Shown piece by piece: positions 1-29,789 of a DNA stretch of 47,956 nucleotides. A program made the position numbers and the translations under genes. The notes beneath the pieces were generated by a model. The model was not told the origin of the DNA. It saw nothing but the letters and a program-made list of their open reading frames with translations, and ran no database searches. Source of the DNA: an uncultured Bacteroidales bacterium (GTDB lineage Bacteria; Bacteroidota; Bacteroidia; Bacteroidales; UBA932). Numbering within the stretch: the first letter of the stretch is position 1; each line of letters starts with the position of its first letter. The stretch lies in NCBI GenBank assembly GCA_944322575.1, contig CALUPK010000013.1:1-47956 (forward strand), given 5' to 3'.

Positions 1-455
1 ACTATGTCGCCCACCTCCAGGACTACGATGTCGCCGGGCACCACGTCCTCCACATTGACGATGTAGGACTCCCCGCCTCGGATGACCTTGGCCATAGGAG
101 CCGCCATCTTCTTGAGAGCGTCCATCGACTTCTGGGCCTGGTACTCCTGGTAGGCACCGATAAAGGCATTGAGCAGCAGAATACCCATTATAATATAGGT
201 GTCTAAAAGGCCTTCGCCCGTCCTGACACCCATGACACCGGAAATCACGGCGGCTATGATCAGCAGAATGATGAGAAAACTCTTGAACTGCTCGAGGAAC
301 ATCACTATGAACGGACGTCCCTTCTTCTGCACCAGCGTGTTCTTGCCGTACTTCTCAATCCGTGCGGCTATCCCGTCGGGACTCAGTCCACGCTCCGCAT
401 CGGTCTGGAACTCCTTCGAGACTTCCTCGATGGAATGATTGTAGTATTGCTTCAT
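1..455 (-). CDS. P-type Ca2+-transporting ATPase, N-terminal part (cut by window edge)
   Basis: The minus-strand frame opens at ATG 455 and runs off the window at base 1, giving about 151 residues. It begins MKQYYNHSIEEVSKEF, a typical cation-ATPase N-terminal domain (residues about 1-45). A transmembrane hairpin rich in Ile/Leu/Val follows (about residues 55-100), then the start of the actuator domain, VVPGDIVVLEVGDI. That last motif is characteristic of SERCA/PMCA-like P-type ATPases, which pump Ca2+ or another divalent cation at the inner membrane using ATP. The phosphorylation site (DKTGT) lies outside the window, so substrate and integrity cannot be judged. The neighbouring AraC-type gene is divergent. 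Confidence 0.88.
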   Translation of the reverse strand, partial: MKQYYNHSIEEVSKEFQTDAERGLSPDGIAARIEKYGKNTLVQKKGRPFIVMFLEQFKSFLIILLIIAAVISGVMGVRTGEGLLDTYIIMGILLLNAFIGAYQEYQAQKSMDALKKMAAPMAKVIRGGESYIVNVEDVVPGDIVVLEVGDI

Positions 456-508
456 ATCTTAGGAATTAAATCGGCTGCAAAATTGGCACTTCATTCCGTA
501 TAAATTGT

Positions 509-516
509 TATGTTTG
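509..516 (+). promoter_or_regulatory. Bacteroidetes-type -7 box before the AraC-type gene
   Basis: TATGTTTG fits the TAnnTTTG -7 consensus of Bacteroidetes promoters. It lies 35 bases before ATG 552, with a weak ATTGG-like element about 23 bases further upstream. Confidence 0.45.
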
Positions 517-551
517 CAGCAGAAAAAATGTAGAAAAAGTCGGATTTAAGC

Positions 552-1310
552 ATGAATTCGGAGCAAAAGGGCTTTACCATAGGACTGTGCACCGCCGGAA
601 AGCGGGAACTGCGCATCAGCGGACGGACCTGGGAGATAGTTCCCGGCTGCCTCTTCATCCTGATTCCACAGCAGTTCACGGAGGACATATCCTGCTCCGG
701 GGACTTCAGCGCCAGGACTCTCAGCGCCTCTCTTGAAGCCATCTTAGAGCACCCCAGCCCGGTGGATATCAACATTCTAAACGTCACCTTCCTCCACCCG
801 GTCATCCGTCTCAGTGAAGAAAGGGCCGCCGGCCTCTTAGAATACTACGATTTCATCAGCAGACACACCGGAAGAAGCGACAATGTCTACGACAAGGAGC
901 TCCACAAGACCCTGCTCTACGCCCTCATGCTCGAGATCAGCGACATCTACCGGGGCATCTCCGGAGACCGGAGCGAGGTGACCAAGCCCCGTCAGGAACA
1001 GCTCACCGACGACTTCTTCAGACTGCTGACCGCCCACTACCGCAGCGAGCACAACGTGGCCTTCTATGCCGGCCGGCTCAACCGCACCCCGAAATATTTT
1101 TCCGAGGCCATCCGCCGCATCAGCGGACGCTCCGTATCCGACTGGATAGCCACCATGCTGCTGAGCGACAGCAAACTGCTGCTCCAGACCACAGACATGA
1201 CCATACTGGAGATATCGGAGGAGCTGGGATTTTCCAGTCCGTCGGTCTTCGTGCAGTTCTTCCGCCACCATACCGGCACCACCCCGCTGCAGTACCGCAA
1301 ACAGCTATAG
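552..1310 (+). CDS. AraC-family transcriptional regulator
   Basis: 252 residues. The C-terminal 100 residues form the AraC/XylS double helix-turn-helix: the first helix region is around NVAFYAGRLNRTPKYFSEAI, and the second has the hallmark ILEISEELGFSSPSVFVQFF followed by HHTGTTPLQYRKQL. The N-terminal part (about 1-145) is the usual cupin-like sensing region, with no recognisable ligand motif. It should act as a cytoplasmic DNA-binding activator; its target is unknown. The gene is divergent from the P-type ATPase gene and convergent with the cardiolipin synthase gene, whose stop it overlaps by 6 bp. An alternative upstream start is not supported. Confidence 0.9.
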   Translation: MNSEQKGFTIGLCTAGKRELRISGRTWEIVPGCLFILIPQQFTEDISCSGDFSARTLSASLEAILEHPSPVDINILNVTFLHPVIRLSEERAAGLLEYYDFISRHTGRSDNVYDKELHKTLLYALMLEISDIYRGISGDRSEVTKPRQEQLTDDFFRLLTAHYRSEHNVAFYAGRLNRTPKYFSEAIRRISGRSVSDWIATMLLSDSKLLLQTTDMTILEISEELGFSSPSVFVQFFRHHTGTTPLQYRKQL

Positions 1311-2798
1311 CAGAGGGCTTACCAGACGGGCCACGGACTCGTAGAATTTATTGCGCCCGGGACGCCTGTGCCACTTGGCCTTGGTTACCAAGGTACAGCG
1401 GGAAAGATCCTTGCGGAACTGGTCCTCTACCGTCCGGGCGCACTCCGGGTCGTAGATGACCGAAGTAACCTCGAAATGATGCTCTAAGCTGCGGTTGTCC
1501 ATATTGGCCGAACCGATGATGCAGTACTCCCCGTCGATGCTGAGCACCTTCGAGTGGTTGAACCCGCGCTTGAAGAGATACACCTTGACCCCGGCGTCTA
1601 TCAGTTCCGAGATATAGGACATCGTACCCCAGTTGGTCAGCCAGGTATCGGAGCGCTCAGGTATCATCAGCGAGACCTTCACGTCAGACAAGGCCGTTAT
1701 CTTTATCGCATTGAGAATCGTCTCGGACGGGATGAAATACGGGGTGATGATACAGATATGGTCCCGGGCCTTGGTGATGGCCGTGAAGTAGCACTGCATG
1801 ATGGCAGCCCAGTCGCTGTCCGGTCCCGAAGCGATGATCTGCGCATAGTAGCGGCTGCCTCCCGCCGTGCCGGCCGCCAGCAGTTCCTTGTCCTTCGCAT
1901 CGACGTAAGGGTAATATTTGCGGCGCCGTCCCAGATTCTTGTTCAGGATAAAATACCGGTCCAGCAGGAAGGTGGCCTGCAGCGACATCACCGACATCCC
2001 CTCTATGCGGACGTGGGTGTCCCTCCACTCGGGGAATTCCCCTCCGTCGAAGTAGCGGTCCGCGATATTGCACCCACCTAAGAAACCGATGCGTCCGTCC
2101 ACGACCAGGATCTTGCGGTGGTTGCGGTAATTGACAATGGGCGGAAGGAAGAAGAGCCGGAACGGGGAGAAATTGAGAATCTCCACCCCAGCCTCCTGCA
2201 GCTCCCCCAGGAACTTCTTGCCCAGACGCCGTCCTCCGAACCCGTCGTACATCATCCGGACCTCCACCCCCTCCCGGGCCTTGGCCATCAGCACCTCCTT
2301 GAAGGTATTGCCCACCCTGTCGTCCTCTATGATGAACGACTGCAGGTGGATATGGGTCTTAGCCCCGCGCATCGCCTCGAGCATGGCGGAGAGAGCCTCC
2401 TTTCCGGAAAAATAGATCTGCACGCTGTCATTGGCCGAGAGCAGGCTGTAGGCGCTGCGGATATTCTGCACCACGAGCTTGTGGTGGCGCCTCACCTCCT
2501 GCGGGATATTCTCCCTGTCCTCGAACTTCTCCAACATCTCCTTGCACAGCTCCTTCCTCAGCCCGAGGTCCCTCGCTCCCTTGCGGGAGAACATCTTGTC
2601 CTTGCGGAAATTGCGGCCGAAGAAAAAATACAGGATGATGCCGATATACGGCAGCATCATCATCACCATCACCCACGAGAGGGTCTTGACCGGATCCCTC
2701 TTGCTGGAAATCAACATAATGGAGGAGTACACCGCTATAGCAATGTTCAGCAGGTACAGAAGCGTGGTGAATACAGGCCAGAGTCTGGTGAATGTCAT
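1305..2798 (-). CDS. cls: Cardiolipin synthase (phospholipase D family)
   Basis: 497 residues. Two N-terminal membrane helices (about 8-30 and 38-60) are followed by two PLD domains, each with an HKD motif: HRKILVVDGRIGFLGG at about residue 227 and HSKVLSIDGEYCIIGSANMD at about 415. Members condense two phosphatidylglycerols (or PG with another donor) into cardiolipin at the inner membrane. The length and N-terminal helices fit ClsA-type enzymes. The ATG lies 3 bp downstream of the stop of the menaquinone methyltransferase gene, so the two are probably co-transcribed. The 3' end overlaps the convergent AraC gene by 6 bp. Confidence 0.93.
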   Translation of the reverse strand: MTFTRLWPVFTTLLYLLNIAIAVYSSIMLISSKRDPVKTLSWVMVMMMLPYIGIILYFFFGRNFRKDKMFSRKGARDLGLRKELCKEMLEKFEDRENIPQEVRRHHKLVVQNIRSAYSLLSANDSVQIYFSGKEALSAMLEAMRGAKTHIHLQSFIIEDDRVGNTFKEVLMAKAREGVEVRMMYDGFGGRRLGKKFLGELQEAGVEILNFSPFRLFFLPPIVNYRNHRKILVVDGRIGFLGGCNIADRYFDGGEFPEWRDTHVRIEGMSVMSLQATFLLDRYFILNKNLGRRRKYYPYVDAKDKELLAAGTAGGSRYYAQIIASGPDSDWAAIMQCYFTAITKARDHICIITPYFIPSETILNAIKITALSDVKVSLMIPERSDTWLTNWGTMSYISELIDAGVKVYLFKRGFNHSKVLSIDGEYCIIGSANMDNRSLEHHFEVTSVIYDPECARTVEDQFRKDLSRCTLVTKAKWHRRPGRNKFYESVARLVSPLL

Positions 2799-2801
2799 GA
2801 G

Positions 2802-3506
2802 CTACTTCCTCCCGATATAAAGGTAAGCCACTCCTCCGGTCATGGACCCGGCGGTCACCTCCCTGAATCCCCCGTCGGAAAGCTCCGCGCGGAACTTCTC
2901 CGGCGCGGGGAAATCGAACGAGGACTCCGGCAGATAGGAATAGGCATAAGCCTGCTTGGAGACAAGCCTGCCTACGGCCGGAAGAATATTCTTGAAGTAC
3001 AATGTGTAAATGCCCCGCCACAGTCTGTTGCGTGGTATGGAGAACTCCGCGATGGCAAGCATGCCCCCGTCCTTGAGGACACGGTGCAGCTCGCGGATGC
3101 ACTGCGCGCGCTTGTCGAAATTACGGATGCCGAAAGCTATCGTGACAGCATCGAAACTTCCGTCGGCGAAGGGCAGTTCCGAGGCGTCCCCGTAGCGGAA
3201 ATCTATTTCCGGTGCCTTCTTCCTGGCTATGGCCAGCATGTTCTCCGATATATCGGCACCTACTACATCGAGTCCATTCCGCTTCAGGGCTATGGAGACG
3301 TCACCTGTCCCGCAGGCCATGTCCAGGACCTTGACTTCTCCGCCTCTGAGAGCACAGAACGAGGATACTGCATGCACCAGACGTCTCCTCCAGGAACGGT
3401 CTATCCCGAAGGAGAGAAGATGATTCAGTCTGTCGTACACCGGGGCGATGGAATCGAACATCGAGGAGATCGTCTCCCGGCTCTTGTTAAGCTGTCTTTC
3501 CGGCAT
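2802..3506 (-). CDS. ubiE: Demethylmenaquinone methyltransferase (UbiE/MenG)
   Basis: 234 residues. The N-terminus MFDSIAPVYDRLNHLLSFG is the UbiE/COQ5 signature I. The SAM-binding loop VLDMACGTGDVSIAL starts at about residue 60, and a second family motif, VTIAFGIRNF, follows. The enzyme C-methylates demethylmenaquinone in the last step of menaquinone synthesis, as expected for Bacteroidales, which respire with menaquinone. The start overlaps the end of the upstream PurL-C-like gene by 20 bp, suggesting translational coupling; cls follows after 3 bp. Confidence 0.94.
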   Translation of the reverse strand: MPERQLNKSRETISSMFDSIAPVYDRLNHLLSFGIDRSWRRRLVHAVSSFCALRGGEVKVLDMACGTGDVSIALKRNGLDVVGADISENMLAIARKKAPEIDFRYGDASELPFADGSFDAVTIAFGIRNFDKRAQCIRELHRVLKDGGMLAIAEFSIPRNRLWRGIYTLYFKNILPAVGRLVSKQAYAYSYLPESSFDFPAPEKFRAELSDGGFREVTAGSMTGGVAYLYIGRK

Positions 3507-27196: not shown

Positions 27197-28383
27197 ATGT
27201 TCAGACTAGTTCTCCGGAATCTGGCCCATACCCTCAGGCGGTATCCCCTGCCCTCGTGCTCAAGGGGGACTTCGGCCTGTCCAGGGGCGGACGGACTTTC
27301 CGCAGCGTGATGAGCGGCATCCAGTACGTCGTGGCCTTCGTCACCTTAGTGTTCATGACCTTCGTACTGCTGCAGAACCACCGGATGCGCAACTCCATGC
27401 TCGGCTTCGACAAGGACATGATAGCCGTGGCCAATGCTCCCGCGGTAGACGGCGCAAGCATAGAGATGCTTCGGAACGAGGCGCGGAAATATCCTTCGAT
27501 AGCCGGCATCGCCGTGGCTTCCGAGAAGGTCGGCGCACAGGACTCCTACAGCACGGCGGGAATGGACTTCGACGGGCAGGAAGTTCAGACGTTCGTAATC
27601 GGAGTGGACCAGGAGTTCTTCAACGTGATGGGCATCAGGATAGTGGAAGGCCGCGGGTTCAACCAGTACGACTCGACCGGGACGACTGTCGTGAGCCGGT
27701 ACTTCATGGACCTGTATGGAGTCAACCTCGGAGACATCCTGCCTCAAGGCACCGGAGAGGTCATAGGCATCTGTGACAATGTCCGGTTCAACTCGGCCCG
27801 CGAGCCCAGCACCCCCATTGCCTTCGTCCCGATGGACATCTTCGACCTGTATGGTGTGCTGTACTTCCGCCTCAGTCCGGGGGCCGACAAGGCTCAAGCC
27901 GCGCGGGACATCGAGGCGCTCATCAGGGTGGCCGACCCCTACTGGCCCTCTCAGGTGGAATTCTACGACACCCTGCAGGGCAATCTCTACCAGAATGAGA
28001 TACGCACCTCCCGCCTCGTGGTGGCCTTCAGCGTCATCGCGGCCATCCTGGCCCTCTGCGGAGTCATCGGCCTGGTGCTCTTCGACACCGAGTACCGCCG
28101 GAAGGAGACTGCAGTGCGCAAGATATTCGGGGCCAGCGTCGCCTCCATCCTCGAGCGGGCAAACATCAACTACGGCACTGTGGTCCTGATCTGCTTCGCC
28201 CTGTCCTGCCCCGTGGCCGCCGTCATCGTATCGCGCTGGCTGCAGAACTTCACCGACCGCGTCCCGATTTACGTGTGGGTATTTGCCCTCGCCCTCGTGG
28301 CCGTACTGACCGTCACCGTCCTGATAGTCACTGCCGTATTCTACCGCCGCGCCACTGCCAATCCCCGTGACGGACTGCAATAG
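27197..28383 (+). pseudogene. FtsX/MacB-type ABC permease, first half deleted
   Basis: ATG 27197 opens MFRLVLRNLAHTLRRYP, the start of a large Bacteroidetes permease, but that frame stops at 27310. From about 27245 a different frame continues with SPALVLKGDFGLSRGGR and the whole second half of such a permease: one membrane helix, a MacB-like periplasmic domain, three FtsX helices, and the usual ANPRDGLQ-type end (stop at 28381). About 250-400 residues, covering the first membrane helix, first periplasmic domain and first FtsX block, are therefore missing. The 375-residue remainder (from GTG 27256) could still be translated. Full-length relatives have about 750-800 residues. No ATPase subunit lies next to it. 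Confidence 0.75.
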
Positions 28384-28389
28384 CACAGA

Positions 28390-29595
28390 TTAATACAGGA
28401 AGCCGAACAGCCACAGCGGGATACGGTTGCCGTACCCCACATCTGTATCATCTACTGCGAGGAAACTGTCGGAAACTCCGGCTATCTGCTCAAAGGACTT
28501 TCCCTTGCCACCGACTTCAAACATGTACTTTCCATCTATGAGAAAGTCCCCGCGATTGGGGAAACTGATATCATGACCGACACGGAGCTGACTGAGGAAG
28601 AAAGTCTCGCGCTCGTTTCCGATATCAACTTGCGGACAGAGGGCGTGCATCAGATTGGGATTGGCCAAGTATATCTTGTCCGGCTTTGTCAGATACTTAT
28701 AGCTCTTTGCCTTAACGTTGAGAAGAGTAAGTATCTGCGCTTTGTCAAGGGCATAGAGCATTTTAAGACCCGATTCGTTGTCCGTGGACAGCTGCCGCCA
28801 CAGCTCCGCCATGTTTGGTTCGAAAGGAACGTTCTCACTGATAATCATCAGCAGCCTTCTGACTTTCTGCAATGTTTCGTATGCAACTCTTTCCACGGAG
28901 GGAAGGTCGGAGTCAATCACAGCAGTAACGGTCTCACGCAGACGCATTGGAAAATCTTCAGGAGACTCTCGGTAAAACGGATAGTATCCCTGTGAGAGGT
29001 ACCGTTCGAAGATAGGGGCAATCTTGATGCGCCCGATGATATCCATCGCAATCCTGACATGACTGCCAAGTAAATCCTCCAATGGAACCGGCTCATAACT
29101 AAGGATTCCCTCCAGTTCAAGATATTCCCGCAATGACATACCGTAGAGAGTGTAGGATGTCTGCCTTCTGGACATATCCGCTACGGCATTGTCTATCACT
29201 AGCAGCGAGCTGCCCGTATAGACGATGCTCATGTCCGGATAATTGTCATATACATTTTTCAGAACCTGAGACCAACCTTCACAGCGGTGCACCTCATCCA
29301 GATATAGCCGGGATATACCGTGCCTGTCAGCCCAGGCCACCAGGTCAATCAGACTATGGGTAGCGAACCACAGGTCATCCAGAGAGGCATAAAGCGTTCG
29401 GTCTATATCATCATAGTTCTCTAAGATATGCTGAAGGAGCATTGTCGTCTTGCCTACGCCACGCGCGCCCTTGATACTGATAATACGGGACTTCCAGTTT
29501 ATACGTCCATAAAGATATCGCTTGAAGCGGAGGTCTGTCTTCGCTATTTTGCGATGATAGTTGTCGTACAAAGGCTGAGGATCTATCTGTGCCAT
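28390..29595 (-). CDS. AAA-family ATPase with C-terminal DUF4143 (nuclease-like) domain
   Basis: 401 residues from ATG 29595; an in-frame upstream Met at 29691 would place the promoter inside the coding region. Walker A is KGARGVGKTT (42-51), Walker B RLYLDEVH (96-103), followed by YTGSSLL. A middle helical region leads to the C-terminal DUF4143 part, where FLID (Asp 354) and MFEVGGKGK (Glu 360, Lys 364/366) recall a PD-(D/E)xK core. Such ATPases are numerous and sporadic in Bacteroidetes and archaea, with no settled function; mobile or toxin-like roles have been suggested. Here it lies alone between direct repeats. Confidence 0.87.
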   Translation of the reverse strand: MAQIDPQPLYDNYHRKIAKTDLRFKRYLYGRINWKSRIISIKGARGVGKTTMLLQHILENYDDIDRTLYASLDDLWFATHSLIDLVAWADRHGISRLYLDEVHRCEGWSQVLKNVYDNYPDMSIVYTGSSLLVIDNAVADMSRRQTSYTLYGMSLREYLELEGILSYEPVPLEDLLGSHVRIAMDIIGRIKIAPIFERYLSQGYYPFYRESPEDFPMRLRETVTAVIDSDLPSVERVAYETLQKVRRLLMIISENVPFEPNMAELWRQLSTDNESGLKMLYALDKAQILTLLNVKAKSYKYLTKPDKIYLANPNLMHALCPQVDIGNERETFFLSQLRVGHDISFPNRGDFLIDGKYMFEVGGKGKSFEQIAGVSDSFLAVDDTDVGYGNRIPLWLFGFLY

Positions 29596-29618
29596 AATAT
29601 TGTTCTCTCTTTTCGCTA

Positions 29619-29684
29619 CAAAGATAACAAAACTTATGGTTGTAACCGTAAAAATATCTTCAGATTTTACGGTTGCAACCATAA
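29619..29684 (-). promoter_or_regulatory. Palindromic promoter/operator of the ATPase gene
   Basis: On the minus strand a -7 box TATCTTTG (29626-29619) lies 23 bases before ATG 29595. Upstream, 29634-29653 and 29665-29684 form a 20-bp inverted repeat (TTATGGTTG-T/C-AACCGTAAAA) with one mismatch. Each arm holds a near-palindrome, GGTTGTAACC or GGTTGCAACC. The nearer arm covers the expected -33 position, so a protein bound there would control the promoter. Confidence 0.65.
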
Positions 29685-29732
29685 ACACCATACCACTGCC
29701 AATCCCCGTGACGGACTGCAGTAGGCCATACG

Positions 29733-29762
29733 AAAAAAGCCGGCGGAGAATGTCCGTCGGCT
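29733..29762 (-). terminator. Terminator after the TlpA-like gene
   Basis: AGCCGGCGGA (29738-29747) pairs with TCCGTCGGCT (29753-29762) with one wobble. On the minus strand it is followed by a T6 run. Confidence 0.8.
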
Positions 29763-29789
29763 ATACAATCTGATGACGCGGTGAGAATG

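What the first reader, a model, noticed from the sequence alone, without database searches (positions are those of the whole stretch)
28352..29724. A self-contained ATPase/DUF4143 cassette inserted exactly at a gene's stop codon, flanked by 28-32-bp direct repeats of the target
The 3' end of the permease gene (encoding TANPRDGLQ and stop) occurs twice, before and after a 1309-bp block that holds only one AAA-ATPase/DUF4143 gene and its palindromic promoter. The repeats match over 28 bases, then differ at one synonymous base, then share TAG. The insert is tight: 6 bases separate one repeat from the ATPase stop codon, 8 separate the other from the promoter palindrome. DUF4143 ATPases are patchily distributed and multi-copy in Bacteroidetes, and their C-terminus has a nuclease-like core, so the gene could be a self-moving unit without a known transposase. 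The 28-bp repeat is far longer than usual transposon duplications, and resembles an attachment site that restores the target gene end.
Basis: partly seen in the sequence, partly recalled or inferred. Interest (0 to 1): 0.78.

Follow-up and report, generated by a model that had tools for sequence, protein, structure and literature searches.

The report
One-gene jumping cassette at gene end
A single ATPase gene with its own switch region sits in this gut bacterium as what looks like a compact mobile insert that copied the last 32 letters of the neighbouring gene when it went in, and several related ATPase genes show the same kind of mark.

Summary
In detail: 28352-28383 and 29693-29724 are a 32-bp direct repeat (31/32) of a permease 3' end, flanking 1309 bp with one AAA_14 ATPase gene and a palindrome pair. 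Two congeners have one repeat copy and no insert. Of 197 ATPase loci surveyed, six (window included) have repeats of 26-46 bp that start 1-10 bp after the ATPase stop and end 79-112 bp before its start. One of these also has a 56-bp exact repeat around two ATPases. A second insertion, in congener G008, has its single-copy empty site in the window's own genome. Similar cassettes sit in unrelated flanks with sharp edges. I read this as a single-gene cassette inserted with a long, variable target duplication, as described for restriction-modification genes. Against it: 191 of 197 loci show no such repeat, including a 98.6%-identical pair in unrelated flanks; remnants of the same family near this site in relatives leave the age and the direction (gain or loss) open. 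What drives the movement is not shown.

The parts
27197..28383 (+). Target gene: MacB/FtsX-type permease, a pseudogene with an internal deletion near 27246; intact 777-aa homologue in G016
28352..28383 (+). Left copy of the 32-bp target duplication (last 32 bp of the permease incl. TAG; CAATAG)
28384..28389 (.). 6-bp spacer between left repeat and ATPase stop
28390..29595 (-). ATPase gene (401 aa, AAA_14; C-terminal part only weakly like DUF4143)
29619..29626 (-). TATCTTTG, like a Bacteroidetes -7 box (motif recalled, not from a call)
   Evidence: recalled motif
29633..29652 (.). Palindrome 1 of the operator-like pair
29666..29685 (.). Palindrome 2 of the operator-like pair; outer edge of the conserved cassette
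29693..29724 (+). Right copy of the target duplication (CAGTAG), contiguous with the intergenic sequence seen at the single-copy sites
29725..29789 (.). Intergenic region with a terminator-like hairpin, 98.5% identical to that of the single-copy sites in G002 and G006

Best explanation
The block is a single-gene mobile cassette: an AAA_14 ATPase gene with its own paired operator-like promoter, inserted at the 3' end of the permease gene with a long target duplication (about 32 bp). Shown: the repeat; single-copy sites without insert in relatives; cassette edges that stay put between copies in unrelated places; the same hugging duplications, of different sequence and length, at five other ATPase loci. 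Inferred: the insertion joined the cassette to a break whose two nicks lay about 25-55 bp apart, so that fill-in duplicated the target. Insertion at gene ends survives because the duplication restores the end. The palindrome pair is probably an operator for the ATPase itself. What cuts the target (the ATPase with its nuclease-like end, another element or the host) is not known.
For: Single-copy sites in G002 and G006. Survey: 6 of 197 loci hugging (window 31/32, L111 44/44 bp, L081 41/43, L065 40/43, L317 41/46, L356 24/26), plus a 56/56 bp repeat around a two-ATPase block in L356. Controls: mispaired flanks reached at most score 16 in 1500 and 20 in 800; with positions restricted (limits set after the first cases were seen), 2 of 4000 scored 80 and the rest at most 13; four pairs of neighbouring ATPases in the set share flanks and probably explain the two. 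Non-P-loop genes: 0 of 230 at score 20 or more with the downstream copy within 12 bp of the stop. L081: 43-bp repeat in G008, a single copy at the site in the window's own genome, flanks 96 and 98% identical. L111/L103 cassettes are 91.4% identical and their homology ends within 1 bp of the L111 repeat edges; L098/L099 98.6% over 1326 bp with unrelated flanks. At least one palindrome upstream in 162 of 197 ATPases against 99 of 242 other genes.
Against: 191 of 197 loci have no hugging repeat. Of 13 related cassette loci looked at first (at least three are the same contigs twice), 12 had no repeat of 11 bp or more within 700 bp and one had 11 bp. The most alike pair in unrelated flanks, L098/L099, shows none and carries pieces of neighbouring genes along, so edges are not always clean. 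Palindromes of this family without the ATPase lie near the same site in G004, G008, G011 and G014, and G010 has the ATPase after a permease fragment without repeats. So the cassette may be old here, and the single-copy sites in G002/G006 may be losses. The left repeat copy looks like the G016 allele (CAATA.CAC), which a recombination origin would also explain. The genomes are drafts in many contigs.
Confidence: 0.74

Rival explanations
1. Homology-facilitated illegitimate recombination: donor DNA carrying a permease end plus ATPase recombined by homology in the permease and joined illegitimately on the other side a little upstream, leaving one donor and one recipient copy of the gene end.
For: Left copy resembles the G016 allele and right copy the G002/G006 allele at CAA/CAG. 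The permease is 97% identical to G016 but 77-78% to seven other congeners (82% to G017 over a part). The process is described in naturally competent bacteria (abstract of PMC3240628 in a search listing; passages of PMC2884548).
Against: It needs a donor that already has the cassette beside the same gene, so it spreads but does not found insertions. Both window copies share a T absent from the ten other genomes in which I read this permease end. The L111 (44/44) and L356 block (56/56) repeats are identical.
Confidence: 0.15
2. Site-specific integration by a recombinase acting in trans, the repeat being an attachment site.
For: Repeat at a gene end that restores it; one relative of another cassette (G468) lies near a tmRNA gene and carries a short piece that looks like an integrase end.
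Against: Repeats at different loci look unrelated and have lengths from 26 to 56 bp. No recombinase in the insert.
Confidence: 0.05
3. No mobility: an ordinary old gene with its promoter, and the repeat here is a leftover of a duplicated permease end.
For: Family remnants at this interval in several congeners; deletions in this permease in the window and in G010.
Against: Hugging repeats at five other ATPase loci beside unrelated genes and near-identical cassettes in unrelated flanks.
Confidence: 0.06

Closest known systems
Insertion with long target duplication of restriction-modification genes (Nobusato et al. 2000; original not read, known from passages in PMC3031569, PMC1643837, PMC2749054, PMC4978471)
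   Same: Genes without transposase inserted in one genome and not in its relative, flanked by long, variable direct repeats of the target
   Different: Here a lone AAA_14 ATPase gene with its own palindrome pair, not restriction-modification genes; repeats 26-56 bp; at or just behind gene 3' ends in the cases found
Insertion sequences and MITEs
   Same: Sharp edges, target duplication, internally deleted remnants that keep both ends (G445, G013)
   Different: No transposase, duplication much longer and variable; no terminal inverted repeats noticed (not searched for systematically)
AAA_14/DUF4143 ATPase families (Pfam PF13173, PF13635)
   Same: Sequence family; 19 AAA_14 matches in the own genome, 14 of them over the cut-off
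   Different: The Pfam descriptions shown say nothing of mobility

Membership tests
Insertion with long target duplication | Long, variable direct repeats of target sequence flank the insert | tested here: met
   Window, L111, L081, L065, L317, L356
Insertion with long target duplication | Related genome has one repeat copy and no insert | tested here: met
   Window site in G002, G006; L081 site in the window's genome. No clean empty site found for L111 or L065; L317 and L356 not looked up
Insertion with long target duplication | Insert carries restriction-modification genes | tested here: not met
   Only an AAA_14 ATPase. One passage read says the pattern is 'frequently associated' with such genes (PMC1643837), so this may not be a defining feature
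Insertion sequence / transposon | Transposase encoded | tested here: not met
   Single AAA_14 ORF
Insertion sequence / transposon | Short target duplication of fixed length | tested here: not met
   26-56 bp, variable
Integrase-type cassette | Common attachment core | tested here: inconclusive
   Repeats look unrelated by eye; no motif search was run
AAA_14 (PF13173) | Match over curated cut-off | tested here: met
   89.5 bits, cut-off 27
DUF4143 (PF13635) | Match over curated cut-off | tested here: not met
   13.3 bits, cut-off 28.1 for the window protein; L065 also below, L111 not listed; met by L081, L317, L356

The most novel reading that the evidence does not exclude
AAA_14/DUF4143 ATPases are a large class of autonomous single-gene mobile elements. 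The ATPase, with its nuclease-like C-terminus, recognises its own palindromes and opens targets at gene ends with offset nicks 25-55 bp apart.
Probability: 0.25. Interest if true: 0.9.

Novelty: new variant of a known kind. Interest (0 to 1): 0.7.

Why it matters
These ATPases are numerous in the genomes looked at (19 AAA_14 matches in the window's genome; 22-40 in seven genomes chosen for high counts; weak matches included), and I found no known role for them. If they are mobile cassettes, their patchy spread is explained, and the question of how genes insert with long target duplications but no transposase gets a compact system: one gene, defined edges, and filled and empty sites in close relatives.

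Tried and rejected
Dispersed repeat element: in the search of 19 genus genomes (11 with any hit) both halves of the palindrome pair were found together in four, each at one place; the further hits are single, most of them with 3 mismatches, so this is not a REP-like repeat. Loci with long repeats that I did not count as hugging: L180 (dispersed intergenic repeat), L211 and L190 (simple repeats), L167, L173 and L191 (palindrome copies on both sides of the gene), L168 (30 bp exact but 74 and 286 bp away), L353 (sequence repeated along the locus), L347 (17 bp, promoter-like).

Structure prediction was useless (mean pLDDT 41.5, six close sequences), so no fold search was made. No close solved relative by sequence (single match, E 0.021). 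A scan of viral contigs by six peptide patterns of the window protein found no relative. PHROGs: none for the window protein. PADLOC was not searched (one search failed). L111: the region after the second repeat holds a further piece of the same small gene, so G553 is not a clean empty site. L065: relatives are only about 65% identical.

Literature: searches showed no paper on mobility of these ATPases; the library holds open-licence papers only.

Full report
What is there. The window is contig C13 of a draft genome. Its genus is that of Candidatus Coprenecus stercoripullorum, judging from G010: placed in the same genus, it has a contig of the same length (12527) and the same 89% match as that named record. 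The insert holds one gene, 401 aa, AAA_14, read towards the permease. Two 20-bp palindromes with centres 33 bp apart lie upstream, the nearer one just before a TATCTTTG box (recalled as the Bacteroidetes -7 element).

Single-copy sites. In G002 and G006 the permease end runs straight into the same intergenic sequence that follows the right repeat here, 98.5% identical. The two window copies share a T that the ten other genomes in which I read this permease end do not have, which fits a copy made in this lineage. Other congeners differ. G004 and G008 have, after the permease, a short piece that looks like the ATPase 3' tip followed by two palindromes and one; G013 has only what looks like the tip. 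G011 and G014 have the palindrome pair but no permease beside it. G010 has an 85% identical cassette after a permease fragment and before eno (recognised from its sequence, not annotated), without repeats. So cassettes of this family have been at or near this site for some time, or arrived more than once; I cannot tell which.

Is the mark general? A first look at 56 loci showed two more long repeats (L065, L111). I then compared the flanks of 118 loci of the window's subfamily (the window is one of them, L065 and L111 too) and 79 of other AAA_14 families. They are not a random sample: the first set follows the ranking of the searches, the second is the own genome, a few congener loci and part of the matches in seven genomes chosen for high counts; loci without usable flanks, with repeated proteins or missed by the ORF filters were dropped. 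With the downstream copy starting 0-12 bp after the stop and the upstream copy ending 60-130 bp before the start, limits set after the first cases were seen, 6 of 197 score 20 or more: L111 (44/44 bp), L081 (41/43), L065 (40/43), L317 (41/46), the window (31/32), L356 (24/26). Three more at 14-15 are a simple repeat (L190) or palindrome copies (L191, L173). Of 4000 mispaired controls two scored 80 and the rest at most 13; four pairs of neighbouring ATPases in the set share flanks and probably explain the two. Among 230 other genes none reached 20 with the downstream copy within 12 bp; three reached 17 or more: a simple repeat, a 17-bp match, and the other ATPase of L356, which my filter had let through. 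In L356 a 56-bp exact repeat flanks a block of two ATPases, and a third, partial copy lies between them, as if two cassettes had entered the same target one after the other.

What is duplicated. In the window, L065, L111, L081 and the L356 block the repeat covers or reaches the 3' end of a neighbouring gene; in L317 it is a terminator-like hairpin behind a gene. This may be choice of target or only survival, since elsewhere an insertion would break a gene. The small gene used by L111 in G163 carries, in G370 and G235, what looks like the remnant of a different ATPase cassette directly after its stop (by eye).

Second filled and empty pair. L081 in G008 sits between a gene that looks like an ABC-2-type permease (not scanned) and tRNA-Leu. 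The window's own genome has the same place with one copy of the 43-bp repeat and no cassette, flanks 96 and 98% identical. G016 shares the cassette (its far side is rearranged), G013 has an internally deleted form, and G004 also lacks the cassette but looks like a recombinant scar. Whether the single copy in the window's genome is the original state or a loss through the repeats cannot be told from this.

Edges. In all-against-all comparison, several pairs in unrelated flanks keep the same limits, about 50-115 bp before the start to 0-12 bp after the stop: L098/L099 98.6% over 1326 bp, L111/L103 91.4% with limits within 1 bp of the repeat edges of L111, L236/L235 90.3%, L213/L215 89.6%. Many other pairs in that list share one or both flanks. 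Against a clean unit: L098 and L099 show no hugging repeat, and their group carries along pieces of neighbouring genes. Palindromes are enriched upstream of the ATPases: at least one in 162 of 197 against 99 of 242 other genes and 45% of shuffles; two or more in 72 of 197 (58 of 118 and 14 of 79 in the two sets) against 16 of 242 and 9%. Different families have different motifs (by eye).

Known background. Long, variable target duplications have been described for restriction-modification genes; I read passages in PMC3031569, PMC2749054, PMC1643837 and PMC4978471, not the original papers (PMC2853133 not held). Homology-facilitated illegitimate recombination is a real rival for this one locus. 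I found nothing in print on movement of AAA_14/DUF4143 ATPases in the searches named in Tried and rejected.

Verdict. A mobile single-gene cassette with long target duplication, confidence 0.74. Self-encoded movement is plausible and unproven.

Noticed in passing
27197-27260: The permease is a pseudogene: an internal deletion joins codon 20 to the middle of the gene out of frame; G016 has the intact 777-aa gene. G010 has a different deletion in the same gene.
   Followed up: partly
L287, L288, L098, L099, L286, L290: A cassette group (G373, G292, G445, G442, G468) carries about 20 to 150 bp of a sequence that looks like the 3' end of a tyrosine integrase; in G468 the other side lies near a tmRNA gene. 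The integrase call is by eye.
   Followed up: partly
L286 around 781-974: A 194-bp internally deleted cassette that keeps both ends, like a miniature element.
   Followed up: partly
L173, L191, L181, L167: Palindrome motifs of the ATPase promoter also occur downstream of the gene.
   Followed up: partly
L356 (complement) 266-3087: Array of two ATPase genes with three copies of the target repeat, as if inserted one after the other.
   Followed up: yes
G071, G087, G114, G309, G034, G077, G324: 22 to 40 AAA_14 matches per genome at E 0.001 (weak ones included); 19 in the window's genome.
   Followed up: no
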